Part shown: positions 4,609 to 35,200 of the stretch, one piece after another
Layout of the letters: every line of letters starts with the position of its first letter
How positions within the stretch are numbered: position 1 is the first letter of the stretch
Assembly (NCBI RefSeq): GCF_947623445.1
Contig: NC_135246.1
Coordinates: 13,499,856 to 13,563,855 of the forward strand
Reading direction: 5' to 3'
Length of the DNA: 64,000 nucleotides
DNA from: Clavelina lepadiformis
Lineage: Eukaryota > Chordata > Ascidiacea > Aplousobranchia > Clavelinidae
Made by a program: the position numbers and the translations under genes
Notes under the pieces: model-generated
Told to the model about the DNA's origin: nothing
What the model saw: only the letters and a program-made list of their open reading frames with translations
Database searches by the model: none

Positions 4609-6411
4609 CTATAGCTTCTGCAAAACAACAGCCCAGTTACCACTGTCATAGTAACAGTCAATAACATTACAGCCAGATATGCCTTGACACAAATTTTGAA
4701 GTTCATTTTGTTTAAAAACATGATAAAACCTATAATAGGTTGAATCTGCTGAAATATTATGGCTGGATGTAACATCGTGCCTGTTTTTCTTCTTTTTCCA
4801 CGGGACAAGTAAATCTTGCTGTACAAATGAAGTCTTGTTTTCATGGACAACCAAACTTTGATTTTCTGCAAACGCATTGCAACTGTTTTCATTACGTTTC
4901 GTTATATTACAGTTTGCATGTGATTTTTTCAGATAATTTGAGTCAATGTCATTAAACCTTTGCTCAAATGCCCATACATAAATCAAAGCAAGTGCACCCT
5001 TACGCAACACTCGAAGTATTTCAAGTATGGCAGAATGTCTTCGATCACTTGTGGAATAGTGATGTATCACAGCGATACAAATGCATGCATCAAAGGTACT
5101 ATTCCTGACAGGTATGTTTTGTCCATCACAGAGGAATGCAAAACAATTCTTGTTTAAACAAATGTCAACCAGGGATTGACTACTGTCACATCCCAACATA
5201 CAAATACCGGGACAGCAATTTAGATATCTTCCACTACCACAGCCAACATCTAAAACAACAGAGCCTGGATTAAGATTTTCAAGAAACTTGACTACTTTTG
5301 GCCAAGGCTTTTCACGAGTTGATGAAAAATGGTCTGCTATTTCATTATAAACAGTCTGGACAAATCGCTTTTCCAGATCCACAGCTGATTTTTGACTATC
5401 TGGTATGGTGCAGCCCAGGTTTTCAACGTGATTAGATGTACTTTTAAGAATCTTTCGAAACGTCATCGATATTCTTCGCTCTCGTTTTACAAGGAACTCT
5501 TGATCACTACGTTCATCACAAACTAAATCACTTTTCTTCTGCGTTATGCCATGTGTCCACTTATACCGAGCGTCTCCAGTAAAAATTAACAATGTGCGAG
5601 GTTTCAACATAATGTTTGCTTTGGGTCCAACTGGAGATTTCATTTCCATCACTATCTGTGAGCCCAGACTGATTGATGCTATTCCTGTATCAAATGCATC
5701 AGGATTGTCAATATGATGAGGAATACCATCACCAGGATTGTAAATATTTATGGTAAGTTGATCTGGCCGGTTTGGGATATGTCCTGTCTTCATTATCTTA
5801 TCCAATATGTTGTTTGCAAAAGAAGGGAATTTTTTGCTCAAGGGATTTGATGAATTAACATCGTTGCTTCCGTATTGAAATTTATATCCATAGTGAAGAA
5901 CAGTTCGATGCTTCAAGGTTTCTTGAATGTGCATGTCCGAGCGCTTTGCCAGATCTTTCTCAATTTGCATTATTAATTCTTCTTCCTCTTCAGTACTAAG
6001 AAAATTTTCAAGTGTAATTAAACCTTGTGGGAAGTCATTTTTCTTTTTGATTGCACCTTCGGAAGGAGGCAAAGTTTGTAGGAAGTACAGATACAGTGTT
6101 GCTAACTCATTATCTGATGTTTTAGAAATCTCAACACTTTGCAGTTTATTGAAACAAGCCATAGCTTCATCTGTTTTTTGATATGATAATAGTGCATAGG
6201 ATTTGTCCATGTATGATCGTATGGTATCAATACAACCATACGGCTCACATAACTCGGTTATTACTTTGACGCATACTTCATTTCCTAAACCAGCATTGGC
6301 CAAAACAAGGTTGTTTGTTGGCTCGTCGCTTATATCAAGACCATTGCTGGAAAGTTTTGCCTTGACTTTTAGCCATTTCCTCGCTTTCTTTTTGCTCAGG
6401 TTTAAGGTCAT
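4609..6411 (-). CDS. ALKBH8: ALKBH8, tRNA 5-carboxymethyluridine methyltransferase/hydroxylase
   Basis: Single uninterrupted 600-residue frame with the three-domain order of animal ALKBH8. An RRM covers residues about 34-112 (NLVLANAGLGNE). An AlkB Fe(II)/2-oxoglutarate dioxygenase domain covers about 125-322, with iron ligands H233-x-D235 (PHHIDNPDAF) and H287 (KWTHGIT) and the 2OG-binding arginines R313 and R319 in RRISMTFR. A class I SAM methyltransferase covers about 345-600, with motif I VLDVGCGSGRYL and an IAVIHHYST motif. In the family, the methyltransferase (with TRMT112) makes mcm5U at wobble uridines and the AlkB domain hydroxylates it. All key residues look intact; human ALKBH8 is slightly longer (664 residues). 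No intron, unlike most neighbours. The start is the first ATG of the frame; its 5' side faces FAHD1 head-to-head. Confidence 0.95.
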   Translation of the reverse strand: MTLNLSKKKARKWLKVKAKLSSNGLDISDEPTNNLVLANAGLGNEVCVKVITELCEPYGCIDTIRSYMDKSYALLSYQKTDEAMACFNKLQSVEISKTSDNELATLYLYFLQTLPPSEGAIKKKNDFPQGLITLENFLSTEEEEELIMQIEKDLAKRSDMHIQETLKHRTVLHYGYKFQYGSNDVNSSNPLSKKFPSFANNILDKIMKTGHIPNRPDQLTINIYNPGDGIPHHIDNPDAFDTGIASISLGSQIVMEMKSPVGPKANIMLKPRTLLIFTGDARYKWTHGITQKKSDLVCDERSDQEFLVKRERRISMTFRKILKSTSNHVENLGCTIPDSQKSAVDLEKRFVQTVYNEIADHFSSTREKPWPKVVKFLENLNPGSVVLDVGCGSGRYLNCCPGICMLGCDSSQSLVDICLNKNCFAFLCDGQNIPVRNSTFDACICIAVIHHYSTSDRRHSAILEILRVLRKGALALIYVWAFEQRFNDIDSNYLKKSHANCNITKRNENSCNAFAENQSLVVHENKTSFVQQDLLVPWKKKKNRHDVTSSHNISADSTYYRFYHVFKQNELQNLCQGISGCNVIDCYYDSGNWAVVLQKL

Positions 6412-7142
6412 TATGTGTTTCAGACTAGCCTAATTGTCACAAAATCGAACATGGATGTAAGATCACACCGGGACCGCAGTTAGTATTTGACGCTGTACAT
6501 TACGTTCTACGACCCGATCCAATCGTAACCTTTTTACATTAAGTCAATTGCCAAGCAAAGCAAAAGACGGTAGAGCGGTGTTTCCACGTTCGATTGATCA
6601 CGCGTGGAACCAAACGTGTGCAAAGTTTCTCCGTTATTATTACTCTCTTTTTAATCTCTAACAATTTTTACCTGGCAGAAGCCAGACGAGAAGTGTCACG
6701 CTCCATAGCTTTTTGAGGGTATGCCCTCGTATCATTTTCTTTGGTCTTTGGTCTTTGTTGCAATGTTTCTGTACAAAAACATTCTCGGTGCTGATAATAA
6801 TAACCAAGGTAAAGCCAGCCCGACTTTTTCGTTTGTGTCATGGCGCAAGGCGCATGTCTTTATAGCCCTGATGTTAAAAAAAAAACTTTTCTTTTGAGAA
6901 TGTTTGTAGACAGAAATGAAACATTTGCTACAAATATGTATAAAATTACTTTCTAATTCGGCTTTGAATTACTAGTCGCTGTAAACACTGCATGCAGTGA
7001 AGTATATTTTCTTCATTTTGTGCAAATAGGATTAGTTCTGAAAAGTGAAAAGAAAAGTGCCGGTCGCGTCACTCTCAGACGTCGGTTCATATCAGTTATT
7101 GTTTTAACAGCAGGAGTTGATGTTAGTAGCTAACTACAAAAA
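6412..7142. promoter_or_regulatory. Shared upstream region of ALKBH8 and FAHD1
   Basis: This 731-bp gap separates two divergent ATGs, so both promoters must lie in it or overlap the 5' UTRs; a bidirectional promoter is a reasonable inference. It has no long open frame. I see no convincing TATA box or other named element. Confidence 0.5.
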
Positions 7143-8580: not shown

Positions 8581-10266
8581 ATGGCAACATATAACCCCTA
8601 TGAGGGTAGAAAAGAAGGCATCAAGATTACTTTTAAAATAAACTTACCACCTAAACTTAAAACAACTGGAAGCAGCATTGAAGCTGCCTCGCCTACTTTG
8701 AAGGTTTTGAAGCGATGGTATTATCGGGGAGATCCTAAGCTCAAAAGGGTAAATCAAGATGTTTTTCTTGATTTAGAACTTTTTTTGATTTGTTAAAACA
8801 TGCAATATGATAAATGTTATATTCAAAACATGTACTAACTAACCAGCAAAGACCTTCTTATGCTTAAACTGTCATTACTTAAAGCAGCGAGGTCCAACTT
8901 CTTTTCATCGCGGGCCAAAATCTGAAATTTTTTTATCTTGCGGGCCAATGTTTTTAAATTAGAACTGAAGAACAATGTGACATTGATATTAGAACTGAAA
9001 AAAGTTCTCTTTTTTATTAAAACTGAAATTAGAATAGTTTAAAATTTAGCTGATAAAATTTAAATGCTGATCAATGTGACATCTGCGGTCGAGGTTCTTC
9101 CTCGACAATAGCGACTATCAAAGCTGACTATCAGTTCGCGGGCCAACTTTGGCCCGCGGGCCTGCAGTTGGACCACGCTGACTTAAAGTAACAGTGCTAT
9201 AAATAAGTTAATTTTGCAGTACTATGTTTCATTGTGATTTTGAGAAACCATGTCATCAAATTATATTTACATTTAGGCTGGTATATCGGCATCTTTACCT
9301 GTTTAATTTTATTGTACCTTACCAAGGTTGGTTGATAGGTGATTAGATTAAATCTTAGCATGTTGTTATATAATATCACAATTTCTTGTTTTTGTACTGA
9401 TTTCATGGCTTTATTCATTTCAGGTTTTGGAATGGTTTTATTCTGTGACCCCAGAGAAGGCAAGCAATGCATTTGACTTAAGTGTTTCAGAGCCAATATT
9501 AAAAACAAGTGACAGCTCTTTTTCATGGAAAACACCAGTTTCTGCAAACAACAAAAATAATATAAGCCTTTCAGTTGAAAAACCTGTAATAGCTGCAGAT
9601 CCCCAGCATATAACCTTGACTAAAAGTAGACCTGTTATTCAGAATGACCCCAGAAATACAACCATAAGTATTGAAAAACAGCCTCAGTTTTCCTCAAACA
9701 AGCAACAATCAAGTCTAAAATGGGGAAAGCCAGTTATTTCTGCCAAAACTGGAACCCTGCTCAAATCCACCCCAGTTTTAAGTAATGACACTGAAGCAAA
9801 GCTAGAAGAAAACAAACCAGAGCTTTCAAACAAGACTGAATTAGTGTTGGAGAAAAATGAACCTCTATTCTCTAACTCAACTCCAAGTGTACTTGAACAA
9901 ACTGTTCCTGAGTTATATCTGGCTGAAACTGTTCTGGAGAAGAACAACCCTGAAATGAAGATTAATCCTACAACTTTATTACAGTCCAACCCAGAGCTGT
10001 ATCTCAATCCATTGGAACTTGTACACCAGGTTCCTTTGCTGACAGAACCAACAACTACCCTTGAAAGGAGCCTGCCCGAACTGATGAAGGTTGAGGAAAT
10101 ATTGGAACATGCTAGGCCTCTTATGCTGTCAAAAGATTTTGAACTTGAACACAATTTGCCAGTTTTGGCCGATGTCAAGGTAATTTTAGAGCATAATCAA
10201 CCACTACTTGCACAGGTCCCAACAGATTTCTTGATTACTACCCCAATGCTCTCACTAGATGAATGA
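8581..10266 (+). CDS. Unrecognised repeat protein, 336 residues, degenerate L-E-x(3)-P-x-L repeats
   Basis: Two exons, 8581-8748 and 9424-10266, joined in phase 0 with donor GGgtaaat and acceptor ttcag. The N terminus (residues 1-80, MATYNPYEGRKEGIKITF then RWYYRGDPKLKRVLEWFY) is basic and aromatic and non-repetitive. From about residue 88 to the C terminus run about 17 units of 13-16 residues, each with a central proline flanked by hydrophobics, such as LEKNEPLFSNSTPSV, LEQTVPELYLAETV, LERSLPELMKVEEI, LEHNLPVLADVKVI and LEHNQPLLAQVP. Early units are S/T/K/N-rich; later ones are acidic and leucine-rich. No signal peptide or membrane segment is visible. I do not recognise the family. The regular spacing could be a solenoid or a string of docking motifs; both are inference. 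The gene looks real: a clean splice, one long frame, and conserved spacing at the protein level. Confidence 0.8.
8885..9180. mobile_element. Non-autonomous hAT-type MITE, 296 bp
   Basis: Lies in the intron of the repeat-protein gene. It is flanked by a perfect 8-bp duplication ACTTAAAG (8877-8884 and 9181-9188), as made by hAT transposases. The ends are inverted repeats: CAGCGAGGTCCAACTTC at the left and, read in reverse complement, CAGCGTGGTCCAACTGC at the right. Just inside each end are GC-rich GCGGGCC motifs. It has no coding capacity, so it would need a transposase in trans. Confidence 0.85.
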
Positions 10267-14529: not shown

Positions 14530-17500
14530 ATGGCAAAAGGAGATGAAAAATCTATAAGACAAAACAAACCAGGTCAGAATAACTTACCAGAATATGAAAA
14601 GTTATTGAAAAGTGTTTTGTACGTAAATACATTTTAGTGTCTTTACTATCAAAATTGATGTGTTTTTTCTTTAATTAACTTAAGTTGTAAAAAATGGAAA
14701 AGTTAGAAGAACTGGTGTTATTTTTTATGGGGGAACATTCCAAAATTCTAATATTGGATATAGAAAAGTCACCATATATCGATATTCTATGTGGAAAATA
14801 TAATGTATTATGTCCTGTTTATGGCAATGGTGATAGGGCGTGGCAGTGCTCTGAAAAGTGAACATTTGTATGATAAATCTGAAAAGGTTTTAACATGATT
14901 TTAAATGGCATTGTTATATACTTTTTAGCCTTCTAATGTGAAACATCATAATTATAGTGCTACATACAATGGGAAAGGATATTTTTTACCTGTAAAGTAT
15001 TTTACTTTTGTTATATCAATAAGGAAATATGCATTCTACCTGCAATGTAATAATATCAATATTTGGGATAGAAAGCATTGAGAAAGAGACAACGAGAAAA
15101 ACTTTGCTGATATTTTGATCAGGATTTCATACTTGATAATGTGATTTGAAATTGTAACTTTCGGCTTATGGTTATATTATTTTATCAATGAACATGGGGT
15201 TTCGTGGAGTTAATCAGCTTTAGCAGAACTGTTTTACATGTTTTATTGAAAGTACTGAGTAAAAGAGCTATCAAGTCAATATTGGTAAAATTCAAGTCAA
15301 TACAATTTGTTTATTAATTTACCTTTTCGAGTTTGCTTAATGCTTAATAGAATTTATTGTTCTTGAACTGGGGAATGTTTTTAAATAACTTAAACTTGGT
15401 CATGGTCTCTCATTGTTAGCAACAGTTAGTCAGACATTCTACCACAGTTCCATTTCTTAATCTTATTTAACAGAAATGTCAAATGATGAAATTCAAAACT
15501 TGGATTTTTTGCAGAGCTGTACCATTTAATGGCTGTTTGCAACTAAGTCACTGTGCCACAACCACCACCATAAAAAATTACACACACCTGCTTATCTTAC
15601 TGTTTTCCTGAAGATGCACTTCCCCCAGGTTGAAATACCTTTTTGATGTTATTGGCACTGGGCAAGAGGCGAGTGTAATAAACTCATGCTTGTAATAAAC
15701 TGATGTAACTTCCAATAGTATGATTTAGAACGAGCTCACACAGAGCGTGCATACACAACTGTTAGTTTCATCAAATGACCTTAGTCAGTAAGGCGATCAG
15801 AAGGATACCGGCACAACACAAGATTAAAGGGAACAGTAATCAAGGAACAGCATGTAATAATTTATTGGCAATTAAATTCCAGCATGCTGTTTCCGCATTC
15901 GATGGTGTAACAGTTAGGGAGATGATGACGAAGCTAGGTCAAGCAGTTACCAGGGCAACTATTATAACAACCAACACATCATCAATAACAATTTCATTTA
16001 AACATCATTTATCACAGTGAGCAAGAGATGTATCAGGGTAAAATTTGTCAAAATGACGTACCAGGACCAAAGTCGAAAAGACGCTTTGTAACTAAGACTC
16101 CATATGAGAAAAGATACAGCAGTTGCTTCAGGAAAACACATAAATTGCAACGTGAATTGTAAGAATAATGCGATTTACTTATTCTGGACATTCTGATTTA
16201 CACAGGAAAGGTGTTGGGTATATAGTTACAAAAAGATGTGTACATCCAATGCTGAGATACAACTCGATTACGGTAATGACTGACATGATCGTACTATTAC
16301 AATTCGTCTCAAAGGACACCCTGTAGACTTCACTGTTGTACATGTGTATGCACCTACTGCAGCATCAGAAGAATACCAAGTGGACACGTTCTATGATACA
16401 TTACTGTACATCACACCATTAGTGGAGTTTCTAGGAAAGATGCTTTGCTTGCTGTAGGTGACTAATTACAATCCTAAAGTGGGTTAAGGTGAAGTGATGA
16501 AAGTTGAAAGTAAATATGGGTTAGGACACAGAAATGAAGCCAAAGATAAACTTGTTGAATTTTGTGAAAGCCATGATCTATGTATTGCAAACTGTATTAT
16601 TTTCCAACAGCCTAAGCGATGTTCTACACATGGACTTCACCTGATGAGGAGTATAGGAATCATAGAGATTATGTTATCTGTCAAAATATTGAAAATCTGT
16701 AGTCCTTTTGCCCACAATTTTTTTTTGTTGTAAAATTTGTCATTGCGCTTGGTTTCTAGCTTTTAGCCTATTCAAAATATGTAAAGTCTTTGATTAGTTT
16801 TGATGAAGCTATGTCTTGGCAATAAACACTTAGATCTAATTTTAAAATGTTGGTGTGGCAGCAGCTTTTTCAAACATTATGGACTGAAAGAAGAACAAAT
16901 TCATCTACAGTATAATAAGGGAAATTAAACTACAAATTTCCTTAGAAGCTAAAATTTTAAAACAAAAACTTTTTGTTTTCAAACCTGTTATGAGGAAGGG
17001 TTGGATAGTGAAAGATGTGATGTTGGGTAAAGTTGTCGGTAATAGAAATCCCGTACGACCAATAAATGAGTAGTTGAATGCCATTATAAAGGAAGCGGGA
17101 GCATCACTAGATGAATTAAAGCTTATTGTGCAGGACAGACAGCTGTGGAGGAAGGACATTCATCAGGTCACATGGGCTTTGTATTGGAATACAACTAAAA
17201 CATTGGCTTCCTTAAATTATGTAATTATTAAATGATTAAGTTCAATCACTAATTTGTTTGCAAATTCAGGTTGGCCACAAATCTGCTCTGTTAACTTGTC
17301 ATACATTAGGAATAAGATTGAATTTATGAAGTAGTTGGTCTAACATGGACTGTTTACATTACACTTACAGTCTTAATTGACTGATGATATTGACTGCCTA
17401 CCACAAGTATTCTTTTTAAGAGGAGAGTAGCATTCACTGCCAATACGAGTAAACTTGTTGTTGCCAGTTTGTCCACTTTGCCTTCTAAATTAGTTACTTG

Positions 17501-20500
17501 GCATTTAACATAAAAACTGCCAGATCCAAATGTCTGGGAATAACAACAGGTTTCCTCTTGATGGCCAGAAAAAAATTTTAAACTTTTAATATTTGTAATA
17601 TGTCTAGAATATTATATCGGAAAAGCTAGTCAGTTTTGAGATTTTGTTGCAGGCATCTTGAGCTAAGCTGCTTTTTAACCCTGCAGCAGTCAATGTGTTT
17701 TTAATTAAGTAAATACTTCCCTTTAAACATAAGCTTGCCACAATTTGTTTGAAGCTGTTCCATGGAAGGAATGATTAGCCTAAATACTAAGTTTTTTAAT
17801 AACTTTTTGAAATTTTATCCGGCATAATTATGTGCAAAATGCTTTCCTGAATCTTGGTACTACTTTGCAGGTGAAGGAGTAAAAACAACATTGTACCGAG
17901 AAGGAGGTGCTTCCAAAAAAAATAAGGTTTGTAAAATTTTGCGTTGTTATTTTGTTCAAAAGTATTTGTTATAATTTACAGTAAATGTTACTTTCAAGGC
18001 TGTCCCATTTAATACTAACTCAGATGGTCCAACAGTGGAAGATCCTGCATCAAGCGTAAGTATTTTTCGCATAAAGGTTATACTAAGAGCTGCTCATTGC
18101 CCACATATAGAGCGGGTGATGGTGTGGACCACCATGCATAGTTGGTCAGTTATACACTCAGGTCTCGTTTATCTAAACCCATAGAAACTAGAATCCCCAT
18201 TATCCAACATGAAACTGCTAGGAACGGATTAGTTCTCATGCCCTTTCTCTGTTAATCTGGAAACCTCGTTGTCCGGCTCTGACCCAGAAATTTAGAAACG
18301 TATATTATGTATGTCTAACAAACAAGAAAAAAACACCCACTTATCTGAATCATAAGTTTTCATACTTGTCATATTTTTATGTTTGTTTAAGTCTGAGGCA
18401 TTCATTGACCAACTTTCTAAATTTCTTTACTTGAATCATTTATTTTGGATGCAATTGGATTTTTTAATGAAACAAAGTGATCTGCATTAAATAGGTCTGA
18501 CTGTAAATGATTCTTTTAGCATAGAACCTTCCATCCCGAAGAAGAGGAAAACAGTGCGGCCTGGTCGAGCAGTAGACATAGTGAGACAGGGGAATCAAGT
18601 AAGCTGCTATTCTAACAGTACTTAAATTAGCAAAAGCTAACTTTCTATAAAGTTATTAGGGTGTCTTATAAACTAAAAATTAAAGAAAAGCTTTTATGCA
18701 GCCATTGTACAAACTGAGACTACAGAACAACTACCAAAGAATTCACCATACAGAACAGTAAGATGAAAATTTTACATTTATCTTAACATTTTTTGTAAAA
18801 TGTTATGGGAATTTGAAAGATAAAGATTACTTTTGTTTCCTATACCATTACGAGCAATTTATTTATTCTTTACCAACTTCATGATGTTGCTACTATCAGA
18901 AAGTTTCGTTTGGAACAGGAGTGGCCAAATCGCACATAAATAACTTGAAATTGGAATAAAATTTCAACGCTACTCTTCCTTTTGTATCTCTAGTTTGACT
19001 CAGTCCGTGTTTGTTGGCATCATACAGAAATATAAGAAAGCTTTTCGAACGATATGTTACTTTAACTTGACTTTAAGATGATGCTCCCGTCATCTAATGA
19101 CAGCGTTTTCTTAACCACTGTTTTAGATGCTATATTTTTGCAATGTTTGAAAAAATGGCTTAATTGTAAAAAAGTTTCCTTGTTCAGAAGTTTGTCCAAG
19201 CCTAACATACTATAGATACATATGTACATAATGTTGAAATATATGCCTATTTTCAAGCTATGTTTATTTAGATAGCTTGAATTTTTTTACAGAAGCATGT
19301 CAGTAACACCACATTTACTAAAGGAAGTTTTAAGAATACAGTGCTCAACTTTGGCCCAGGAAATGTCAACGTCAATAAGAAAACTTTCTTTGGTATGCTT
19401 TTCTGTTTTGTTCTGTTATATATTATGACATTTGTTTTGTTTTGGGAAGTATTGGTCATAATATCCGAAGACTAATTTTAGTAAACGGAGAATTATATAT
19501 GGCAAATTTCGGGATCGTACCAAAAGGGTAGTATAAAGCGGATATCATATTTTCTTGATTAAAAGCCGCACAAAATGATTTAAAATATAAAATAGTATTA
19601 GTAATGGGGTTCTATTCGAAGAAATGATGTCATAATTCAGCAGATTCTACTGTACTTAGCATTTAAAGTTTTTTCAGATATTTTTATTGTATGTGGAGGG
19701 TTTATTAAAGGTTATGTCCTGTATAAATTAAAGGTGTCTTTTTACGCATTTTGTCTAAGGGCAAATGACATAATTTTGAATGTGTGTTTTCTTATCAACT
19801 TTCTGAGTGCTTGATTTTGAAGCAATTTCATATCAAAAAATACCAATTTTTTGTTAGTGGAGTGTATACTGTAGATAGGTTATATTATTTATATCAAGTT
19901 TAGTTTTAATGAAGTGAAAATGGGCCTTGATCCGAACTAAATTGTTGATCTCTTAGCTAAGTATAGTGTACATTTTACCCAATTACAGCACACTTGCTTT
20001 TAAATGATATAATCATATTATGCAATGTTTTAGGTGATCCGAGACGACATACATCTAACACTAAAGTGACTTCTGACAACACTGTGGTAAGTTACAAAGC
20101 TGCAATAAGTTTTGCATGTAGAAGTCAAGAGAGGATCGTCAATATTTATATGTTTTATCACACACACTTTGTAAAAAGAAAGTAAGGCCCTGGATATCAC
20201 AGCAGAACATTATCATGCGCAGTTAGTCAGTTATTGAATTATGCCATAAGAAACACAACGTCTCATTCTCAAATAACTAATGTATTGTTAACAATTGATT
20301 TTCACTGTAATGAATGGGTTGGTATTTTATGTTGTAATATCTCCAAGAAACTCCAGGATTTATATCTTGTATCCGATAACTTTTGGACCAGATTTTTTCT
20401 CCAATCCGTTATGTGTAAAGTTTACTGTGTTGCAATTACAACCACATTTCGCTCAGAAATTTTCTTTTGTACGTGTAATTTGCAGCAGTTAAATGTCGTT

Positions 20501-21408
20501 ACAATAAGTACTTTGACAAAACAGAGAATGCTTAACAAATGTTTACGAAAGTGTACTTTAAACTCCATTAAATTAATTCCCAGGAAGTGCGAAAACGTCG
20601 CCCTTCTCAAGATACTCTGGAAAGGCTAAAAAGTTTCACAGCTAATGTAAGCTTTCTTTTTTTCTATGTGTCATGTTGTTTGCAAATTGTTGAAAGGTTT
20701 GTTGTGATTTGTTTCTTCATTCTTTAAGATTTGCTTCATGAGAAGATTTCAAAACTTCACATATCATTTATTTTTTTAAATAAATATCCGTATGGAAGCT
20801 ATCATAATCGCATTCAGTTGATCTTCAAAGCAAAACTGTTTATGAACTTTGTTAAATTATAACAAATGCAAATAAGCAAACAAATACACAGTAAGCCATT
20901 TTTAAAACATTTTCATAGGTAATTTCTCTTTTTAGGCACAGCCTCGTCTTTCTGCTGAGAAAGAAAGCAAAGTCCCAGGTAAAGATGAAAGCATTTCCAT
21001 TATTACAGAAACTAATTTAAAACAGATCTGACATATTTAGTTGATTAAGTCAATACTATTATCTTCCACAATTTAACTTAATTTTTTTAGCTCCAGTACC
21101 GCCTGTCGACCCTGGTCTCCAGGTATTGCAATATTTTGCAATGTTTTGCATATTTACACTCATTCTGGTTGCTGTTTACATGTTATTTACCAAAACAGGT
21201 ACTTCAGGATTATTGGCTTAGTTGACTTTTTAGGTTACGTAGTTTTTAGGTAATATAATCTCTAGTCTGAACCAAAACTTTTATTGCATAAAGAATGGAC
21301 TTTGTTCATATTCTTACGTTAACTGTTGTTTGCGTTCTAGGTTTTATCCACATAAGTGGTAATCAAGGTGCAACCATTACTGCAGCCGGAAACACTGTAA
21401 ATGGTTGA
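14530..21408 (+). CDS. Unrecognised C-terminally membrane-anchored protein A, 241 residues
   Basis: Eleven small exons that all join in frame: 14530-14572, 17871-17926, 17999-18055, 18520-18598, 18702-18757, 19293-19392, 20034-20086, 20584-20646, 20936-20978, 21091-21198, 21341-21408. The protein starts MAKGDEKSIRQNKPGEG without a signal peptide. A long hydrophilic S/T/E/K-rich region includes an AVPF block (exon 3) and an asparagine-glycine block NFGPGNVNVNKK (exon 6). One membrane segment (VLQYFAMFCIFTLILVAVYM, residues about 195-217) is followed by a 22-residue tail ending ITAAGNTVNG. Such a layout fits a type II or tail-anchored protein. The gene at 25022-30394 is a tandem paralogue: same first-exon phase, same 56-nt second exon, same 68-nt last exon, and a matching tail. 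I know no family with this architecture. The first exon is placed by phase and by the paralogue, so it is the least certain; a LINE remnant sits in intron 1. Confidence 0.72.
16020..17180 (+). mobile_element. Decayed LINE (non-LTR retrotransposon) with internal deletion
   Basis: Broken coding matches to a LINE of the type often annotated as craniofacial development protein 2-like. Endonuclease parts: 16290-16400 reads RTITIRLKGHPVDFTVVHVY, 16518-16620 reads GLGHRNEAKDKLVEFC, and a shifted frame from 16622 reads YTWTSPDEEYRN. At 17040-17175 comes the extreme C-terminal signature DELKLIVQDRQLWRKDIHQV. The reverse transcriptase core between these parts is missing. Stops and frameshifts throughout show it is dead. 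It lies in intron 1 of gene A, in the same orientation. Confidence 0.75.
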
Positions 21409-24400
21409 AGCTGACAACTAGAAACCTAGATAAATGACATTGCGGTGAAATACTTTTCTTCTGGTTACAAGTGAAAGCAGTTTACAGCATTGTTTGTTTT
21501 TTGCAGCAACACATAGAACGCCAATGTTTTCAGACGGATATTCGTTTGATATTTTAGTCTTTTTTATCCCCAATATTATGATATTATTATTTTATCCAGA
21601 CGTGAGAGGCATTGCCATAATTGTTATTAAAATGCCAACATACTGGTAAGCATTTTGGATGCTTTTTGTTATGTTTCAATTTATTTCTGAATTAAGGCCC
21701 TTCCATGAAGTTTGATTTTTTGTCACTTATTTTAGCTAACCTGGTGTAATGCATTGTATAAGTACGAAGTAAGACCCCAGGTTTTATGGTTATTTGTTTT
21801 AATATTCACTACTGTAAGTTGTTAGGATTTGTTGCTGTGTTGTTTGTAAACATGTGGTTTGTATATACTATGCAGTATGTTTTCACTTTTCATATTCGAA
21901 ACTGCACTTTTAAAAAGTTTTATTATAGTGATTTTTGTTGCATCCCTATAGTGTAGCGTCTTACTTGTCGTTGCCACTTTAAGAAGACACCACAAACGTG
22001 AAATCTACACCACTCTTTAGTGTATACACTCAAACATTGGTAATAACTACCGAGATGTGACTAGGCCGCATCTTTTTGGATATTATCAAATAGCCGGCGA
22101 GCCCAGTCGCTACATCAGAATCACATTTCAAAGTTAACGAATATTATAAAACTATTTTAATGGAGCCTATATTACATACAACTTACATAAATTTATAGGT
22201 TCAAAATCAACAAATGGTGCAATTACTATTTAGGATGTTCGATGTGAATTCATTGTGAAACACAGCTTGTCTTGCATATAGTATTGTAATATGCTTTAAT
22301 TTGCATAATCCAACAAGTATGAGTATTGATTATATTGAACCAAACAATGCCATGTTAGTGTTGTACTGGCGACTTTTTTCCGCCAACACATTAATTGTTA
22401 TGGAAATCATTTATATCATAATTGGTCGTGTATTGTTTTATTTGTGCTGGTTGGTACTGTAGAGTAGAGAATGTAAATTACTCGTGTGCTGATTGTTATG
22501 TCTATAATTCCTACCATAAAATGGTACAAATTGACGCATTCTGAATACAGTTATGTTTTCTTTCCATATGAAACCAGAAGTTTGCTTTAACTGGCTGATT
22601 CCCAACTCTTTATGGTACAATGTGTGGTATTATTTCGTTGTCATCTTTTCTATAGATAAAAAGTTTGTATTAACATCTTTAATTTTTTCTCATAAAAACA
22701 CTGAATATAGTAAAATCAGTCGAATCCCAAATATCTATTTGCATGTAGGCCTATTATTTGTATTATCAAGTGTATTATTTTTACGAAACACTGAAGTAAA
22801 TTTCATTATTTAAAGTCATGCCCATTTAACTACTGTATCTGACCACTGAAGCTAGGCGAACCTAATAGGACTTGAAGTGAAATATATTTATGTACTGATG
22901 CAACTTGTAATACTTAGGAAATCAAGTTCTTTTTTGTTTTATGTCTCCGCTAGCGACTAGCTTCAAGTGTATACTGTATGTTTTCTTGTTACGTTTTAAT
23001 TAGTCATAAATGTTAAACGAGCGACTCTTTATTCTTAAACTATAGAAATGCGTGTTCCCATATTTGCAAATAAATAAAAATTCCAACATGAGACTCAACC
23101 TCTTATAAAAAAAATTGTATCTACAAAACTACCACATATGGGGTTTTCCCAATGCTAACAGGACTAATGATATTGTACAAAATAGAAAATACTGTAGCCC
23201 ACCTGCGCTGCATATACTGCGCTCAGTACGTCATTTCTAGTTACTGTTAGGGACTTAGAGTGATCAACCCTCAGACGTTTGAAATCATCAAATATATATG
23301 TCATATATTCTAAGACAAGTAAAGAGATCTAGTCAATTTAAGCAAGAAATGATGCAGAGGTTGCAAATTACGTTACAGTAATCAATTCCCAGGCACTTAG
23401 GATCCTTCTATTTTACGCTATGTACATCAACCACATGCAGCATTGGGAAGCCATGTGCATCAACCTTGTGCAAATTAATTCAAAGGAAATAGCAGTCCAG
23501 TTATTTCGGCTGTTAATATGTTTTTAATGTTAGGGAACACGTCCTCTACATCTTCCAGCAGTGTAGTTGTTTCGTTTTTTGTGTTATTTCGGCCTTAAAT
23601 TCGTTAAACTAAGGAATTATTTGTGGTTTGGTGGCCATGCTAATCTACCATCTTATAGCGCAATTCTATTATCGCTGTCTTGCATGTTTTAAGCCTAGGG
23701 CTTTGCCACTTTTTCTGCTTGTTAGTTGTTCGTGAGCATTTGTTTTATTGTGCTATAACTACTACAGTTAGCATCCTAACTTTTGCTTCGCACAGTTAAT
23801 GGCAAAAAATAAACAATACAAGTTTAAACAATCCACAAATTACTAATGAAAAACTATACTAATAAATAATTTTTACTCAAGATGGAAAAGTATGATATGG
23901 TAGTTTATGAGAAGAAAAAATACATGCAAAAATGGAAAGTGTACCTTAAAAGCACGTTTTGTGGCCTAGCCTAGTGAGGGCAGGAGAGAATGATATAGAG
24001 GCCCACGAGTGTACTAAAATATAAACAGTAAGAATCCGATGCTAAGTATTAGCAGATATTAGAGTATTACCATTAAGAAGTCATGCCTCTGTCTTTAATA
24101 TTTCTAGTATGGCTCACAAAGAGGACACAGTTTGCATAAAGCTGCACACGCTTAAAATAATGTGACTGCAGACCATACGCTTTTTTGAAAGAAGGCAGAA
24201 TTTTTTTGCATTCTACACCATTTTAGAAATTGTAAATCCAAAAACTTCTGGGGAAGCATGCCCCCGTACCTACCCCTCTAGGAATTAGGATAGGTTACTA
24301 CACTTTACGTCTCTTGCAATTTTACTTGACTGTACATAAAAATTTTCACACAGTAAGGTATTGACCACATGGAGTAATTCAGAAGTGGTCATGTGACCTC

Positions 24401-25021
24401 TTTAATGCACAGAAAATATTCCATCCATTTTGAATTACAAACGATTTGTCAAAAACTTCGTATATTTCTTTAAAGTGAAGTTAGTCATCCTAGTTATGGG
24501 ACTCTCACGAACTGACAAAAGTTTTCCATGCTAAAGTTATTGGTGTTTGGTGCTAATATCTTCTAAAAACCTAAGAAATATAAAAGTCATGGGATCAAAT
24601 TGGATATATCATTTAGGGGTTATAATATGGAAGTGCACAATCCTATGGTCGCAAAGTCACAGTGCACAACGACTGCATTACTCACAATCAGAAAGTATCA
24701 TAGATTTGATGTAGCCTAGGCCTAGTCTGATAATGATACGACAATAAGATCAGTTAGAAAAAGTAAACTAGTGCACTGTAATGTCGTGGTTCACTTATAT
24801 TTGTGTATATGCGGCCAAATGGAGTTTAGGTATGACATAACTGTGTTCAGTTTTTAAGTTTTGCAGTACATTAATTAATTATCAGCAATGTTTATGGGGA
24901 AAGAAAAGTGATTTGGGTTTGTTATTTCAGATGAGCTGAAGTACAGTGATCTGTAAAAGTTTATCTACCAGTAAAATCCTAGTTAACAAATAAGCAGATA
25001 CTTTTCTATTTATGAATAAGC
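21409..25021. other. Spacer between the two paralogous genes
   Basis: About 3.6 kb, starting with the 3' UTR of gene A and ending with the promoter or 5' UTR of gene B. It is AT-rich with no supported gene. Near 24240-24290 a GC-rich phrase (TGGGGAAGCATGCCCCC) resembles sequence common in invertebrate transposon relics, but no ends were found. Confidence 0.45.
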
Positions 25022-28000
25022 ATGAATTTCAATGGGAAGCCAAAAGTATCAGGTAAGATCATTAGTTGTTAGTGTTACTGTCCATATATATTTAATTGGA
25101 ATATTGGATGTCTCTTACTTTTTCACTTCCACATAAAACCTGAATTGGATGGTGTTATGAGGGGTAACCATAGTGTTGCAATCTCACATAATTGTACCCA
25201 TGTGCATAAGTTGTTGTGTGATTACTCTTTTTAACTGGTTTTTAATATAGCAATTATGATAATTATTTTTTGTTAGATGTGCAAGAGGAGCTTTCAGAAT
25301 ATGAAGAGTCTAGTACTTCAGACAAATATAAGGTCTGTGATTTTGTTATGCAGATGAAGTCGGTTAAGTATAGACCGCTTCAACGTATATATATATAATA
25401 TTATTGCATACAAATCTGAAATTACGAACCAAAGTTTATCTAACACTAAGTAAAAATGTCGGTTAATCGCATAGCACTTATAGAAATAAGCTGGATTATT
25501 GTAAAAGATTTTTGTCCCAGTTTGTACCGTCATTCGCTTAACTGCATGTTTTTTTAAGCGTAACATCTAAATAGATTTATACTTCTCACCTGGATGAGTG
25601 TCATTAATAAGAATTTCATCTTCTCTGTGGTAGTAGATCATATGAACGACCTGCCCTGGCAGTTTAGTCCCCCGCACCAGTTCGGCAAAATCACATTAGT
25701 TCCTCACAAGGAAAAAGAAAACAGTATAACACAGTACTTTGATATATCCTACAAATGAATACTTGTACATCAGACCACTTAAATATATGTAGGCGTTCAG
25801 TAGGATAGGGGTTACTGATAATAATATGTGTACTATTTTTCGCTCATAGTATTTCGGCCAATGACAACCAAAAATTTTTTTATCAGAGTTTAGGTTTGGC
25901 ATATAAGGCCCCTCCTGATTTTAATCCAATTTTTTGTCATAAAAAGTGACTTATTCCCCTGTATATACTAAACTGTTATTTCTGTGGCTTTGATAGAATA
26001 TAGTTTTGTAGACTGCACAGTCATCTGATAGATGTTTTTAAAGCGAATCGCTTAAACGTATGTATTGGACAATTGCATCAAATTTGCCTGACAAGTTGGA
26101 TGTCTAATTAAATGATTTCGTCGATATATTTTTTCATGCTGGTGCTTAAAATGCATCAAAAAGTATGGTTGTAGGTTTTGATTCTTGTGTTTACTCTCAA
26201 ATTTTCTTTTAAAGCTGCAGACACTTTGGTTTGGTCACCCTGCGATGCATATAAAATCTTGTGTTTTGCACTACCATTTGCAGTTGTAACATAAATGCCT
26301 AGTTTTGTTGATTAGGCTGAACCATTCATGACCACCCCATCTGGAGATGGTCGATGTGTTGATGAAGATGATGAGACTTGCAGTGGTCCAACTGTTGAAA
26401 GAAATGTAAGCGTCTTTACTTCGATAAAAGGCAGTTTGAGATGGTGAACATGTCACAATTATTTCACAGTTATCTTTACTTGCATGTTTTTAAGAAATTT
26501 CAGTCAAGTGACTTGTAAATCTATTTATTTTACAGATTAACGTTTCCTCTGCACGTAAGTAGACTTGATTGCATTTTTTGTTTTGCTTATTAAATTCATT
26601 TTTATTCACCACTTATAATGGCTGCAGAAGAGCAAATGGAGTATTCTGAAGAGAAAAACACATCCAATCCTAATAAAGTATGTCATGCTTCAGAAACTCT
26701 TTTATGCATTAATTTTGAAAAAAGTATAGGTGTTGCAGAAACAACGTTGTTTGTGTAATATTCTGTATATGGTTAAATTAAATCTGGTTATCTCACTTAT
26801 TTTCTCTTCATCATACACATACTGTATTATTCAATTCACTTAGAGCTAGTTGTGATTGCAAAACTTATGTAATTATGTGCTACCAGTCACTAGTACCTGA
26901 TTATTGTCAGCTAAATATTTTTCACTCAAATATTTGTTTTACATTCTGTGTTTTTAACTGAAATAATGTGGTAGGTTGAAATAGAAGTCAAAACAATGGC
27001 ACATGCTAACTTCAGCCTTGCAGCTGTTGTGTTGATCATGATTCATGACAGTTACCTCATAATGTTAAACATACTTACAGTTCAATGCAAAATAGGTCTC
27101 TTGGCTCTCTGTCAAAGACAGACAAGTTATGAAAGAATGATGTGTGACGAATTGAATGTAGGATTAAAGTGGGATTATTGTTGAATCACAACATTGATTT
27201 TGGTTAACATATTTAGTTTAAGGTTTGTTAAAAAATCACTTCCAACTCAAAGTTATATCTGTTGAAATACTGTGACAACCATAAACAAAAGTGAAGCAGT
27301 GACACTCTTAGCTAATGCTCAAACATATAATTGAAATCGAAAGTTATAATCTAGTAGCACCGGCAGAGGTTTTACTGTTGATGCACTGTGTTTTAACAAA
27401 GCAATGTGCAGGTAGTGATATTAGCATCAATATCTAATGGAAAGCAAAGTGCAAAGCCCATATGTGGTCACTTAGAAACTGCTATCACTATCAACATGTT
27501 GAATAAACTGAGCAATTTTACACATTAAAGTTTTTGCATTGCTGCTACGTACTGTAACTGAGTATTTTTTCACACTTTGTTCTAAATTTTTTATTTGTAA
27601 TGAAAAGTTGTTATTAATTATCTAAAGATTTATTCAGCAGAATATATACTTTAGAAACTATCATTTTGTCTGTCATGTTCTATGTCTCATTACATTTGAC
27701 TTTGCTCACATGTAAAAACTTTTTCAGGCTATCCCATTTACTGATCTTCCCGAAGAGGATGATGACAATGGAAGTTGTAACCCTGAACAACCTGATCCAA
27801 CTCATGAAAATCGTACCCCTCGTCAAAATGTAATAACTTCCACCTTAAATTGTTCGACTAATTGTGGAGCTAATTGACATGCATTATAATTACTGGTATA
27901 TGTGGTCTTACAATTCTTATATATTTCAGTCTTTTACAGGAACCCCCTGGACATGAAGAACCTTGTAAGATTACAGTATTGCTGCTTTAATTGTAAATCT

Positions 28001-30394
28001 GAGGTTAATAGTGTCCATCATTTTTCTGTAATACATTTCTAGTTTTACTAAGTAAAGAGCAAATTTTATTCATCTGCAGCTCAGCAGTACTCTGAGCGAA
28101 CACATTATTATCAGAAAACATCTGCAGCAAGTCAGGTGACTGTGTACAACAATGTATATATGCATATTTTATGACATATATATATAGCAACGTTTGGATG
28201 TCATCAGTTTAATTTTGCTTAGATTTTAAATAACATTAAGTGTCTCTTTCTCTTCATTAATATAAACGTTATAGAATTTTTGTTTTACAGGTTCATCAAC
28301 GTATTCGACCCACTGTGATTGACCGTAATAAAGCCACTGTATGTTTTAATTACTGTTGTATTACTTTTGTAACAGATTTATTTTTTCGATGTCTGTTGTA
28401 TTAGCCACTTTATGTAAACGTCTAGATTATTATCACAAATATTATAAGATACTTAGCATTAAGTTATCAGTAGGGAGAATTTTTTTAATTCTCAAGAAGT
28501 TACCGATTTCAAACCTAATATAGTGCTCTTGGACAATTTGTATGGTTTTTGGACCTGAAAACCTCGTCTATCTCCCTGGTAGACTTTAAAAAATACATTA
28601 AAATTGCTAAATTTTTTTGTCGTTAGAACATATTCATCAAAATAGTTTCGATTTTTTATTTTGAATGAAAACTTAATGTTTAACGTTTTTCTTGCTATCA
28701 GACTTGATTTTGTTAGCAAATATTAACCAGTAGTAGATGGCTTTATTTTTGGCAAAAGCCATCATTTTATCTCAGTTTTGCAACATACTAAAGTATAAAA
28801 TTTTGACTTTTTGGACCAAGTTTGTGTACCATATTTGTAGGGTATGTTTTATCAACACACGTATTGTGAATTGATAAAGATTTTAACACAGCAGTATTCA
28901 ATATAAAAGTATTTTAAGTTTGTTGTAATGTTTTGGTCCCACATTGCCACCTATGAAAAGCGTGTAATGTACAAAACAACGTTTGTAGTAACAATTGTGT
29001 TCTGATAGTAATCGTTCCCAGGTTGAATGAAGAAGGGCTAATGAAGTCCTACTTCTTTGCTTTTTCATATTAAGAAATGTCATGATGCAGATGGAAATAC
29101 TTGTTGCAATAAATTTTGTCAAGTCATAAAGTTTTTCACAATCAAGAAACACCGCAGTGACACGATCAAAGCAATGTCATACTGCAAGAAATCCATGAAG
29201 AATGTACTTGTTTGCTTTACACAAAAGTAGTTCACAGATTGTTCGATCACAAAATTGTAATGATTTGTGTTATAAATTTGAATCTGCTTTGCTGAAGAAA
29301 AAAACAATGATGCTACAGCATTGCTGTTAAACATGCACACTTTGTTAACAAAAAATGAATAATTACTTACTGTTATGATAGAAGCAGTATGGTACATTAG
29401 TGTAATAATTAAATCTCCAGTTACATGCAACACTAGAACATGAATCCTTTTATTACAACAAAACTGTGCTGAGTTGTATGATGTTACTCATGTTGATACA
29501 GACATAATCAAATTAATTGTTGCAGCTATTTTTGGACAACACACATTAAGTAATAGTTCTTGCGCAAAATGTGAAAGCATAATCTTCGACCTGGGAAATG
29601 ACCTGACTCTTCCTAGTTACCACATTACCGCAAATCCTGAAACTTGCCTTCTCCCATAAGGTTTAATTTTCATGTTTTGGTAGTTTTGTTCAGTGGATTT
29701 TTTTACAAATTTGTTTTTACTGTATTTTTTATGCTTCAGAATGATCCTCCACCTTCCAGAAGTAATGAAGTTCCAACAGGTAAAACGCTGGTATAAAAGT
29801 TGTAATTGGTCTAGAAGCAATGTAGCTACACTAGGAAAACATTGCTGAGAATGCAATGTAGCAGTGTGCTGAAAAATAAGCATTAGTTTTTTGAAGGAAT
29901 AATATGCACAGTTAAAGTTAATTTTTAATTTTTTTAGCTCCGTGGTATGCCGATCTTAATACTTTCATTCTGGTGTTATTTTCCATGGTCTGCATATTCA
30001 TTGTAGTTGTAGTAACCGTTTATCTATATTTTTCAAAGACAGGTAACTAACATTTGCATAAATAACAATTTTAGTTCAGCTTAATTCACAATATCCTTAA
30101 AGCGTTCTTGTTCATTTTTAACTGTTGTACATTTATAATATCATTCATTTCAAAGTATAGAAGAACATTTCAAGTTTGTTCTAAAACCTATACAGTAGTG
30201 AGTAGATGGAATTTAGTCATAGACCTTTTTAGAGCTTATAAGTTTATGTTTTGCCCTGCATGAACAGAAATTTCCCGAAACAATATTTTTTGTACTTTAT
30301 TTATGTATTCTCTTGCGTGTTTCTAGGTTACATCACCATCACAAACAATCCTGGTGCAAACATAAGGGCTGCTGGTAATGATGTAAATGGCTGA
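25022..30394 (+). CDS. Unrecognised C-terminally membrane-anchored protein B, 229 residues, tandem paralogue of A
   Basis: Twelve small exons close in frame: 25022-25052, 25277-25332, 26316-26405, 26536-26554 (a 19-nt microexon), 26628-26677, 27728-27829, 27940-27964, 28080-28135, 28291-28338, 29740-29779, 29938-30042, 30327-30394. The protein begins MNFNGKPKVSDVQEEL. It has an acidic, S/T-rich region with two AxPF blocks (AEPFMTTPSGDG and AIPFTDLPEEDD), each right after an exon ending in lysine (DKYK, PNPNK). Then comes one membrane segment (FILVLFSMVCIFIVVVVTVY) and a 22-residue tail ending IRAAGNDVNG. The tail matches that of protein A at 14 of 22 positions. There is no signal peptide. Exon 4 is so short that an alternative model could skip it, but phase supports it. 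Function unknown; likely arose with gene A by tandem duplication. Confidence 0.72.
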
Positions 30395-32271: not shown

Positions 32272-35200
32272 TTATCGAGAGGATACCACTGTTGAAGTGG
32301 CAGTGGAGGTGATTGCGCTCTGTGAAGAGCCAGCAGTTTCCTCAGGGGGTGCACTCGGCACTACGGTCGTTTCCTCAGTGGATTCCGGTTGAGGGTGGGT
32401 TGCGACAGTTGTGTAAGGAGGGGGAGGTTCCTGCATTAAAATTGCGCAAAGTTTTAAACAAAATTCAAGAATTGAAATTAATAAACGGCGCTTTTCTTGA
32501 AAAATTAGTTATATAAATAGATCTGTTCAAAAAGATGGAGGGTGAAAAAGTATATAGTCACCAAATATGGCATGTTCTGCGAAATATTAGAGTCGGTTGG
32601 TAATGGTGCACTTTGTGATGCGGTTGGAGTATAAGGAGGAAGCTCTACATGATCTGGTGGCTGTCAAAATTGGTAAATGAAATTTGTACGAAATAGGATA
32701 AAAAAGCAAATTATTTTTATTAATTACGGACAGGTCAACAAAGCTATTGTAATTTACCTTATATAAAAACTACAGTAATTATATTAGCTAATTATACACA
32801 TGATTCTTATGATGCTTCAAGATTAGTGAACATCAAAGCAGAACTTCTGGGTTTTATTGATTGATATCAAGCTAAAGGTAAATAAGTCTCTTAGTTTGAA
32901 ATATCTATCATGCATTCTTTGCAAATGTCTAGTTTAAAATAATCCACAAGGAATAAAGTTATTGCAAATATGAGCCAACAGCTTACTTTCCAGCTTTCAT
33001 CGATTGGTTCATATCCTTGGGATGGTGATCTTCGGAATCGATGAAAAATGTTAAAAGACTCTGTTCTTAAAACTCCATAAGTCGGTTCACTAGCAACCGC
33101 GCTGCAGTAATATCCCAAACAAGCAAACAGCGCAGTAAGCACCACGAATACGATTACCCAAAACCCTGAAACATAAACGAAAACTTTTCAAGACTACATA
33201 TAACTACTACATAAGTACTACAGTAAATAGATTAATTCTGTTCAACTAGCCAATTTAAGTTTTAAAAGAATAATTTAGCACATTCCAAATAGTAATACAA
33301 CCAAAATATTAAAATTTTTTTTTTGCACCATGGCTTAAAAGGAAATTAGTTTTACTGGTTAAAAACTAGATATAAGCTAAAATAAAATACTAATAATTTT
33401 CTTACACCAAACTTTCCATATTTCCTCCCAGCAGCAGTTTTGCAAATGGCTTCCACAACAATACGCAGTGATACCTTAGTTTAAAAAAATCCTGATTAGT
33501 AAAAGCTTGCACATAGCTTACAGCTAAAAAAATTGGTAGTTGGCATGTCATCAACATCACAAAATTTTTTTAGATAAAAACAAATTCTATAAAAACAAAT
33601 TTCTAAAAAATGTTACTCAGTATAAGTACTAAGTTACTATTGCACAGTTTGGTACCAAACTAAATCTAATTTAAGAAATTCGATTCAATTAAAGTGTCAT
33701 CTTACCATAGCAATATTTTACAGGATACCGTCGAGAGGAGCTACATATAGCATCTGCCTACAGAAAAAAGAAAACTTTTTAAAAAACAATAAATCATTAC
33801 AAAGACCATTTACCATTATTAACTCTAATGTTATTACAATCATTCCCAAATTTACAGTTACCATACAGTGTAGTGTTGTAATGACTAGAGTCACATTTTT
33901 AGATTACTTGACTTGACTCGAGTCAATGCTTGAAATGACTTGACTTGAGTCTCGGAAATGAACTTCATGGGAGTACTTAAATCTTAGTTGTTAATTTATT
34001 GACAAACTGAATTATAGACTTTTGATTTCGTTGTGAACGATCGGTTAAAGGTATAGCCAATGACATGACTTGGTTTAACTTGCATTATATTTTAATTTGA
34101 CTTGACTTGATCCAATTTGTTATTCGACTCAACTTGACTTAAATCAACTTCCCAAATGACTTGAGTCTTAAAAAAATTATATCGTTACAGCATTGATACA
34201 GTGGTTATTATTTTGTAAAATAATTTACATGGCGTTATATAATGGTTTCCAGTGACTATTTCACTATAATTAAGCCATGCAGTCGATTTTTAAAAATAAG
34301 TGAATAGTTTAGCAAAAAAATAGATGTGGACAAAGTTGAGTTTCATTATTTAAGGTTTAGTTCGGCCTAAATTGCAACTGGTAGATGTTTACAATAAATT
34401 AGTAGCGTATTGGCTATAAACCACCAAGTTAGGTTAACAATAAAAACAGCTTCAACAGCGTGAGTGTTTCTTGTCAGATAGCAAAAACTTTTTATTATGC
34501 AGCACAGAACTACTACCTTAAATATTATTGTTGGAAATTCGTATAAAACTCCTTCAAATATGTTCTGTTTATATAACAAATCATAATATCTAGTAATAAT
34601 AGCAATTTTGATGACAAAAAATGACAAAAGTTTATGAAATAATACTTATAACTAAACCCGATAAAAACAGTTCCCAGTAACCACAAAACAAGTTATGCCC
34701 ATGGGTGCAGTACCGACACCTTGGTTACTATTATTTTTGATATTGTATATGCAGCAGGATCTTGAAATACAGTTGCACCGAGGATGAGCTGTTTGGTTTG
34801 TGTCTACCAATACCTTAGGTTATTAGTTTCTCTACTGGCTCCCTGGGAAACTGTGAAACTTTGCCAGCGTAACCGCGATAGTCATTGCATTTAGTTTTAC
34901 TTGCATAAATAGGAAAATATCCAATTAATTGGTGACAAGGTTAGCTTTATCTCAAACCTCACAAATCATGGTTAATAAGAAAATGGATGTTACTGTGTTA
35001 CGTAATAAAATAACTGCAGATCATATTGACCGACTGTTGTTATGCTTATTTTGTAAAAAAGACAGTCACACTTTCACAAAAGTTATTTTGCAATAGTGTT
35101 GTGCATTTTAGTTACAGATTTACTTTTAAATTCCGATAGATTGAAATCGATCATATTTGGGTTTGATAACTCACAAAGTGGAAAGTGTGGCAGCTGCATG

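What the first reader, a model, noticed from the sequence alone, without database searches (positions are those of the whole stretch)
14530..30394. Tandem pair of undescribed small membrane-anchored proteins with a shared exon plan
Two adjacent same-strand genes (11 and 12 exons) code for 241 and 229 residues and end in the same way: a phase-1 membrane exon (108 and 105 nt), then a 68-nt last exon whose 22-residue product is identical at 14 positions. Both also start with a short phase-1 exon ending K-P-x(1-2) and a 56-nt second exon, followed by an AxPF exon. The hydrophilic middles have diverged strongly. I know no family with this layout. Intact frames over more than ten tiny exons in both copies argue against pseudogenes. 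A lineage-specific tunicate family is the inference.
Basis: partly seen in the sequence, partly recalled or inferred. Interest (0 to 1): 0.78.

Follow-up and report, generated by a model that had tools for sequence, protein, structure and literature searches.

The report
Sea-squirt pair of orphan membrane genes
Two neighbouring sea-squirt genes, apparently copies of one ancestor, seem to encode small proteins with a floppy, fast-changing main part and a conserved membrane anchor and tip; they match no family that could be checked here.

Summary
Two adjacent plus-strand gene models, A (14530-21408, 11 exons, 241 aa) and B (25022-30394, 12 exons, 229 aa), have GT-AG introns throughout and in-frame codon bias far above matched intron stretches. 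They share a membrane exon plus a 68-nt last exon (tail 14 of 22 identical), with replacement sites much less diverged than synonymous ones. Three additions: (1) the intron phases of the whole genes differ by one deletion; (2) B's phases run (1,0,0) three times, and its first two exon triplets are similar in sequence, so at least one exon-block duplication is likely (the third triplet and A's modules show no similarity); (3) the membrane exon is in-frame skippable in both. No family match was found (Pfam and NCBIfam for both; PDB sequences for B and the shared TM-tail block), and no third gene, though that search is insensitive. The assembly is probably Clavelina lepadiformis, chromosome 7. 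A tunicate-wide family could not be tested: no other tunicate was searchable. Best reading: a tandem duplicate of an orphan, C-terminally anchored protein with a disordered body. Function is inferred only. This is an ordinary kind of novelty.

The parts
14530..14572 (+). gene A exon 1, MAKGDEKSIRQNKP (ends phase 1)
   Evidence: in-frame stops just upstream; similarity to B exon 1 not above chance
17871..17926 (+). gene A exon 2, 56 nt, phase 1 to 0
17999..18055 (+). gene A exon 3, AVPF exon, phase 0 to 0
   Evidence: exons 2+3 similar to B exons 2+3, 1 of 2000 shuffles
18520..18598 (+). gene A exon 4, phase 0 to 1
18702..18757 (+). gene A exon 5, 56 nt, phase 1 to 0
19293..19392 (+). gene A exon 6, phase 0 to 1, contains NFGPGNVNVNKKTFF; by phase it takes the place of B exons 6+7
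   Evidence: codon score slightly negative, -1.0; a genome search with exons 6+7 returned only these exons themselves
20034..20086 (+). gene A exon 7, phase 1 to 0
20584..20646 (+). gene A exon 8, phase 0 to 0
   Evidence: weak similarity of exons 8+9 to B exons 9+10, 52 of 2000 shuffles
20936..20978 (+). gene A exon 9, phase 0 to 1
21091..21198 (+). gene A exon 10, membrane exon, 108 nt, phase 1 to 1
   Evidence: hydropathy peak 2.48
21341..21408 (+). gene A exon 11, conserved tail FIHISGNQGATITAAGNTVNG and stop
25022..25052 (+). gene B exon 1, MNFNGKPKVS (ends phase 1)
25277..25332 (+). gene B exon 2, 56 nt, phase 1 to 0 (first exon of triplet 1)
26316..26405 (+). gene B exon 3, AEPF exon, phase 0 to 0
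26536..26554 (+). gene B exon 4, 19 nt, phase 0 to 1
26628..26677 (+). gene B exon 5, 50 nt, phase 1 to 0 (first exon of triplet 2)
   Evidence: triplet 1 against triplet 2: 0 of 2000 shuffles
27728..27829 (+). gene B exon 6, AIPF exon, phase 0 to 0
27940..27964 (+). gene B exon 7, 25 nt, phase 0 to 1
28080..28135 (+). gene B exon 8, 56 nt, phase 1 to 0 (first exon of triplet 3)
   Evidence: triplet 3 matches the others by phase only; codon score slightly negative, -0.8
28291..28338 (+). gene B exon 9, phase 0 to 0
29740..29779 (+). gene B exon 10, phase 0 to 1
29938..30042 (+). gene B exon 11, membrane exon, 105 nt, phase 1 to 1
   Evidence: hydropathy peak 3.25
30327..30394 (+). gene B exon 12, conserved tail YITITNNPGANIRAAGNDVNG and stop

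Best explanation
An old tandem duplication left two genes for a C-terminally anchored membrane protein. SHOWN: intact coding models with GT-AG introns, a single strongly hydrophobic segment ending about 25 residues before the C-terminus, a low-hydropathy body, a conserved TM plus tail, a shared phase plan, and two similar exon blocks in B. INFERRED: the proteins are made without a signal peptide and inserted by their C-terminal anchor. The disordered body then stays in the cytosol as a fast-changing display of short linear motifs (a scaffold or adaptor). The 22-residue tail on the far side of the membrane is the constrained part and binds a partner or itself, so the pair works as a disordered tether whose specificity sits in the tail. 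Because the membrane exon is phase 1-1 in both genes, skipping it would give a soluble isoform with the same tail. Likelihoods: real genes about 0.93; tandem paralogues about 0.95; anchored with body in the cytosol about 0.65; scaffold with tail as binding element about 0.35.
For: Gene models and hydropathy. Coding bias. TM plus tail similarity, 0 of 2000 shuffles. In 47 aligned codons the proportion of synonymous differences is 0.75 and of replacement differences 0.27; in the tail alone 0.65 and 0.25: purifying selection with synonymous sites near saturation, so the duplication is old. Body mean hydropathy lies on the disordered side of the Uversky charge-hydropathy line in both (0.365 against boundary 0.429; 0.329 against 0.451; formula recalled). 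Phase strings differ by one deletion (chance 0.0071 or 0.00073, depending on the assumed phase mix and taking introns as independent). B triplets 1 and 2 are similar, 0 of 2000. The first exons read MAKGDEKS and MNFNGKPK, with no hydrophobic start.
Against: No transcript data. Orientation is uncertain: within 15 residues of the membrane segment the tail side carries K in both proteins (1 K/R, 0 D/E each), while the body side is neutral in A (1 and 1) and acidic in B (0 and 2). By the positive-inside rule this would rather put the tail in the cytosol. The body net charge is opposite in the two (+8 and -18), which does not suggest one shared body function. Triplet 3 of B shows no similarity to triplets 1 and 2 (1567 and 428 of 2000), A's modules none to each other (1416, 1930, 266 of 2000), and A's modules 2 and 3 none to B's modules 2 and 3 (1776 and 1979 of 2000). 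Four exons score negative for codon bias: A 6 and 10, B 8 and 11. The Uversky test is crude.
Confidence: 0.5

Rival explanations
1. A diverged member of a known animal membrane-protein family, unrecognisable because a disordered body evolves too fast for profile searches (homology detection failure).
For: The body is low-hydropathy and hardly alignable even between the two neighbours, so distant orthologues would be missed. No animal protein set was searched. A 2020 paper argues that many lineage-specific genes are explained this way (PMC7660931, seen only as a title and the start of the abstract in the listing).
Against: The TM plus tail block is conserved between the copies and spans only two exons, and still matches no Pfam model and no PDB sequence as a two-sequence profile.
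Confidence: 0.3
2. The opposite orientation: the body lies outside the cell or in the lumen and the 22-25 residue tail is a cytosolic signalling or oligomerising tail.
For: Lysine directly after the membrane segment in both and no excess positive charge before it; four N-glycosylation sequons in B's body.
Against: No signal peptide in either first exon. Possible upstream acceptors near the two start codons (read by eye) would need different phases, so a shared upstream exon is unlikely. A has only one sequon, and sequons are expected by chance in N-, S- and T-rich sequence.
Confidence: 0.2
3. The tail (with A's exon 6) is a functional amyloid-type or beta-solenoid stacking motif, so the proteins cluster by templated beta-stacking, as RHIM and fungal PP or HET-s motifs do.
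For: The shared pattern G-aromatic-I-x-I-x-x-N-x-G-A-x-I-x-A-A-G-N-x-V-N-G has alternating hydrophobic residues with glycine and asparagine, and A exon 6 reads FGPGNVNVN (judged by eye, no amyloid predictor was run). Motif length is about 20, as quoted for PP (passages of PMC5485727).
Against: The core G-(I,V)-Q-(I,V)-G quoted for RHIM and PP is absent from both proteins. There is no RHIM Pfam hit, and in the whole genome only two RHIM matches below cut-off, 19.1 and 15.4 bits against 20. No other protein with the same motif was found.
Confidence: 0.07
4. Not functional genes: decayed or chance exon chains.
For: No RNA evidence; A intron 1 (3298 nt) carries what looks by eye like decayed transposon sequence; four of 23 exons have slightly to clearly negative codon scores.
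Against: Intact frames through 11 and 12 exons, 21 of 21 GT-AG introns, overall codon bias, excess synonymous change between the copies.
Confidence: 0.05

Closest known systems
Tail-anchored membrane proteins (general class)
   Same: No N-terminal hydrophobic signal; a single strongly hydrophobic segment close to the C-terminus (about 25 residues after it in both).
   Different: The conserved part is the segment plus tail rather than the body; no known family member recognised.
KASH proteins (architecture only)
   Same: Variable or extended body, C-terminal membrane segment, short conserved tail beyond it (KASH features recalled).
   Different: The KASH tail end (proline-rich PPPx, recalled) is absent, and no KASH match appeared in Pfam.
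Botryllus histocompatibility factor BHF (another ascidian disordered membrane-associated protein)
   Same: Ascidian protein described as having several disordered regions and lying at the plasma membrane (passages of PMC12065747).
   Different: In those passages BHF is compared to LAT except for a TM domain, and three cysteines in its first 50 residues are said to matter for its membrane location. A and B have a TM segment, A's body has no cysteine, and only one of B's three body cysteines (43, 51, 99) lies in its first 50 residues. Sequences were not compared.
RHIM and fungal PP amyloid signalling motifs
   Same: About 20 residues, rich in I/V, G and N.
   Different: No G-(I,V)-Q-(I,V)-G core; no RHIM profile hit.

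Membership tests
Tail-anchored membrane protein | Single TM segment within about 30-50 residues of the C-terminus | tested here: met
   Only one cluster of hydrophobic 19-residue windows in each protein, starting at 191-207 (A) and 175-192 (B); tails of 25 residues by my reading of the segment ends. The definition is recalled.
Tail-anchored membrane protein | No signal peptide; post-translational insertion with the body in the cytosol | tested here: inconclusive
   No hydrophobic N-terminus; flanking charges lean the other way; insertion route not testable.
KASH protein | Pfam KASH domain and proline-rich C-terminal end | tested here: not met
   No Pfam hit at E up to 10 other than one unrelated weak one in A; tails end GN-x-VNG.
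RHIM / PP amyloid motif | Core G-(I,V)-Q-(I,V)-G or a profile match | tested here: not met
   Core quoted in a passage of PMC7885112 is absent.
Botryllus BHF | Sequence homology to BHF | not tested
   BHF sequence not on hand; only passages about it read.
Botryllus BHF | No TM domain; membrane association through N-terminal cysteines | tested here: not met
   TM segment present; A's body has 0 cysteines.
Tunicate-wide gene family | Orthologues with the conserved tail in other ascidians | not testable with these tools
   Only this genome is held; it has no relatives in the search tool.

The most novel reading that the evidence does not exclude
An undescribed tunicate family of modular disordered membrane proteins, built by repeated duplication of a three-exon block, whose constrained 22-residue tail is a self-stacking beta motif that clusters the proteins in the membrane, with soluble forms made by in-frame skipping of the membrane exon.
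Probability: 0.05. Interest if true: 0.6.

Novelty: new member of a known kind. Interest (0 to 1): 0.3.

Why it matters
If the family is real across ascidians, it is a compact case of a protein whose body diverged almost beyond recognition between neighbours while its anchor, tail and exon plan stayed fixed. The phase map gives an alignment where sequence gives none, and the tail gives a search handle for finding relatives.

Tried and rejected
RHIM membership: a Pfam scan of both proteins gave no RHIM hit. A whole-genome RHIM search gave two matches below cut-off, the better at 19.1 bits against 20, neither in these genes. The core motif is absent from both proteins.

More copies: protein searches with A's TM plus tail (3 matches), B's tail (1), A's exons 6-7 (2), whole B (8) and whole A (10) returned only pieces of A and B. 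A degenerate tail-end pattern gave 3 matches at up to one mismatch, two of them A and B, with 1 for the reversed control. A shorter pattern gave 10 matches, two of them A and B, with 9 for the control, so the rest are at chance level. The other match and 7 of the 8 others were read upstream and do not look like the tail; L025 was left out because its last codon is TGG, not a stop. Limit: whole B did not find A, and B's tail did not find A's tail, so a copy as diverged as A is from B can be missed by the protein searches.

Bacterial or viral relatives of the TM-tail block: none confirmed (viral contigs 120 pattern matches, prokaryote genome contigs 171). A shared upstream signal-peptide exon: judged unlikely, because possible acceptors before the two start codons differ in phase (read by eye). 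A three-fold sequence repeat in both genes: supported by sequence only for B triplets 1 and 2; the rest rests on phase. Structure prediction was not used, because the spliced proteins are not contiguous in the DNA. An opening pattern search of the genome for first-exon-like strings gave 16 matches and was not pursued; it served to learn the assembly size. For a name in print I ran seven answered literature searches; the 5 to 12 papers listed by each showed nothing on these genes, but the searches were not exhaustive and the library has no preprints.
Full report
What was checked. The two genes were rebuilt exon by exon from the raw sequence. Gene A runs from 14530 to 21408 with 11 exons and 241 residues, gene B from 25022 to 30394 with 12 exons and 229 residues. 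All 10 and 11 introns are GT-AG, and both frames run intact to the stop. The tails are identical at 14 of 22 positions.

More than chance. Codon preferences were learned from four long reading frames in the same window (1340 codons; one of the four has no Pfam match). Gene A then scores 37.8 bits and gene B 65.9 bits, against -42.6 and -41.1 (sd 10.3) for open stretches of the same lengths from the same introns, with 0 of 1000 random sets reaching either; the other two frames score -0.2, -1.0 (A) and -6.4, -15.3 (B). The background was estimated from the same introns, so the contrast is somewhat flattering, but the frame difference is not affected in that way. The two membrane exons themselves score negative (-5.0 and -8.3), as do A exon 6 (-1.0) and B exon 8 (-0.8).

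Relationship of the two. TM plus tail: local score 140, 0 of 2000 shuffles. In the 47 aligned codons the proportion of synonymous differences is 0.75 and of replacement differences 0.27, so the copies are old and this block is under constraint. Outside it, exons 2+3 are similar (1 of 2000 shuffles) and A exons 8+9 against B exons 9+10 only weakly (52 of 2000). A exons 5+6 against B exons 5-7, A exon 7 against B exon 8, and the first exons are not above chance (1221, 654 and 1462 of 2000). The K-P resemblance of the first exons should therefore be dropped. The whole bodies compared at once reach 93 of 2000.

A hidden order in the exon plan. Intron phases are 1,0,0,1,0,1,0,0,1,1 in A and 1,0,0,1,0,0,1,0,0,1,1 in B. 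They differ by one deletion: A exon 6 stands where B has exons 6 and 7. The chance that a random phase string of A's length fits B this way is 0.0071 with the observed phase mix and 0.00073 with a 0.5/0.3/0.2 mix. B's first nine phases are three runs of 1,0,0. The first two triplets resemble each other in sequence (0 of 2000), with AEPF and AIPF at the same place; the third does not (1567 and 428 of 2000) and neither do A's modules with each other (1416, 1930 and 266 of 2000). Across the genes, A's first module resembles B's first and second (1 and 6 of 2000), but A's second and third do not resemble their counterparts (1776 and 1979 of 2000). So at least one duplication of a three-exon block is supported, and a three-fold origin is only suggested by phase.

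How many copies and whose genome. Protein and pattern searches of the 209-Mb assembly found only these two genes, with the caveat that whole B did not find A. The assembly size (209.06 Mb), the length of contig 4 (25,070,715 bases) and the GC content of the window fit Clavelina lepadiformis kaClaLepa1.1 (210.1 Mb, chromosome 4 of 25.07 Mb, GC 35-36%; passages of PMC10884593). They fit Ascidia mentula less well (197.0 Mb, chromosome 4 of 22.72 Mb, GC about 39%; passages of PMC11109543). Against this, the held assembly has 95 contigs, the published Clavelina one 102 scaffolds and the Ascidia one 95, so the match is an inference; no other tunicate assembly was compared. Neighbouring genes (connexin, FAA hydrolase, an ALKBH8-like protein named from its two domains, a SIS-domain exon) fit a chordate, since connexins are, as I recall, a chordate family.

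What it may do. Both proteins have no hydrophobic N-terminus, a body on the disordered side of the charge-hydropathy plot, one membrane segment, and a 25-residue end. The most likely reading is a C-terminally anchored scaffold with the body in the cytosol, where the body shows short motifs and the tail is the constrained binding part. Flanking charges lean towards the opposite orientation, so this is held at modest confidence. The membrane exon can be skipped in frame in both genes, which would give a soluble form; this is untested.

Known things compared. Pfam gave one weak hit for A (E 0.22, below cut-off) and none for B; NCBIfam gave none for either; PDB sequences gave one hit for B at E 1 and none for the TM-tail profile; A's body was not searched against PDB. 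RHIM and PP motifs are excluded by the missing core and by profile searches. One paper also reports no RIPK1 homologues in tunicates (passage of PMC12119088). Among the ascidian proteins met in my reading, BHF is the nearest in style (disordered, at the membrane) but is described as lacking a TM domain (passages of PMC12065747). The genes are best called an undescribed orphan pair of an ordinary kind until other ascidians are searched.

Noticed in passing
window 16200-16740 (intron 1 of gene A): Broken frames that look, from memory, like a decayed LINE endonuclease region (for example VESKYGLGHRNEAKDKLVEFCESHDLCIAN). One piece (16488-16730) gave no Pfam match.
   Followed up: partly
window 32272-33187, minus strand: Exons of a small membrane protein with a PPPPYTT motif next to the pair, possibly of the WBP1/VOPP1/Shisa kind (recalled, by eye); no Pfam match over cut-off.
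   Followed up: partly
window 9352-10266, plus strand: A 304-residue frame of short degenerate repeats (around ...LEKNxPELSN..., by eye), no Pfam match at E 0.01.
   Followed up: partly
window 4612-6429, minus strand: Uninterrupted 606-residue frame with 2OG-Fe(II) oxygenase plus methyltransferase domains, from memory an ALKBH8-like tRNA enzyme.
   Followed up: partly
window 57555-58427, plus strand: Connexin exon, Pfam E 1e-35, with a long charged C-terminal end.
   Followed up: no
window 25012-25060: An out-of-frame ATG at 25012, 10 bases before gene B's start, opens a short overlapping frame (read by eye).
   Followed up: no
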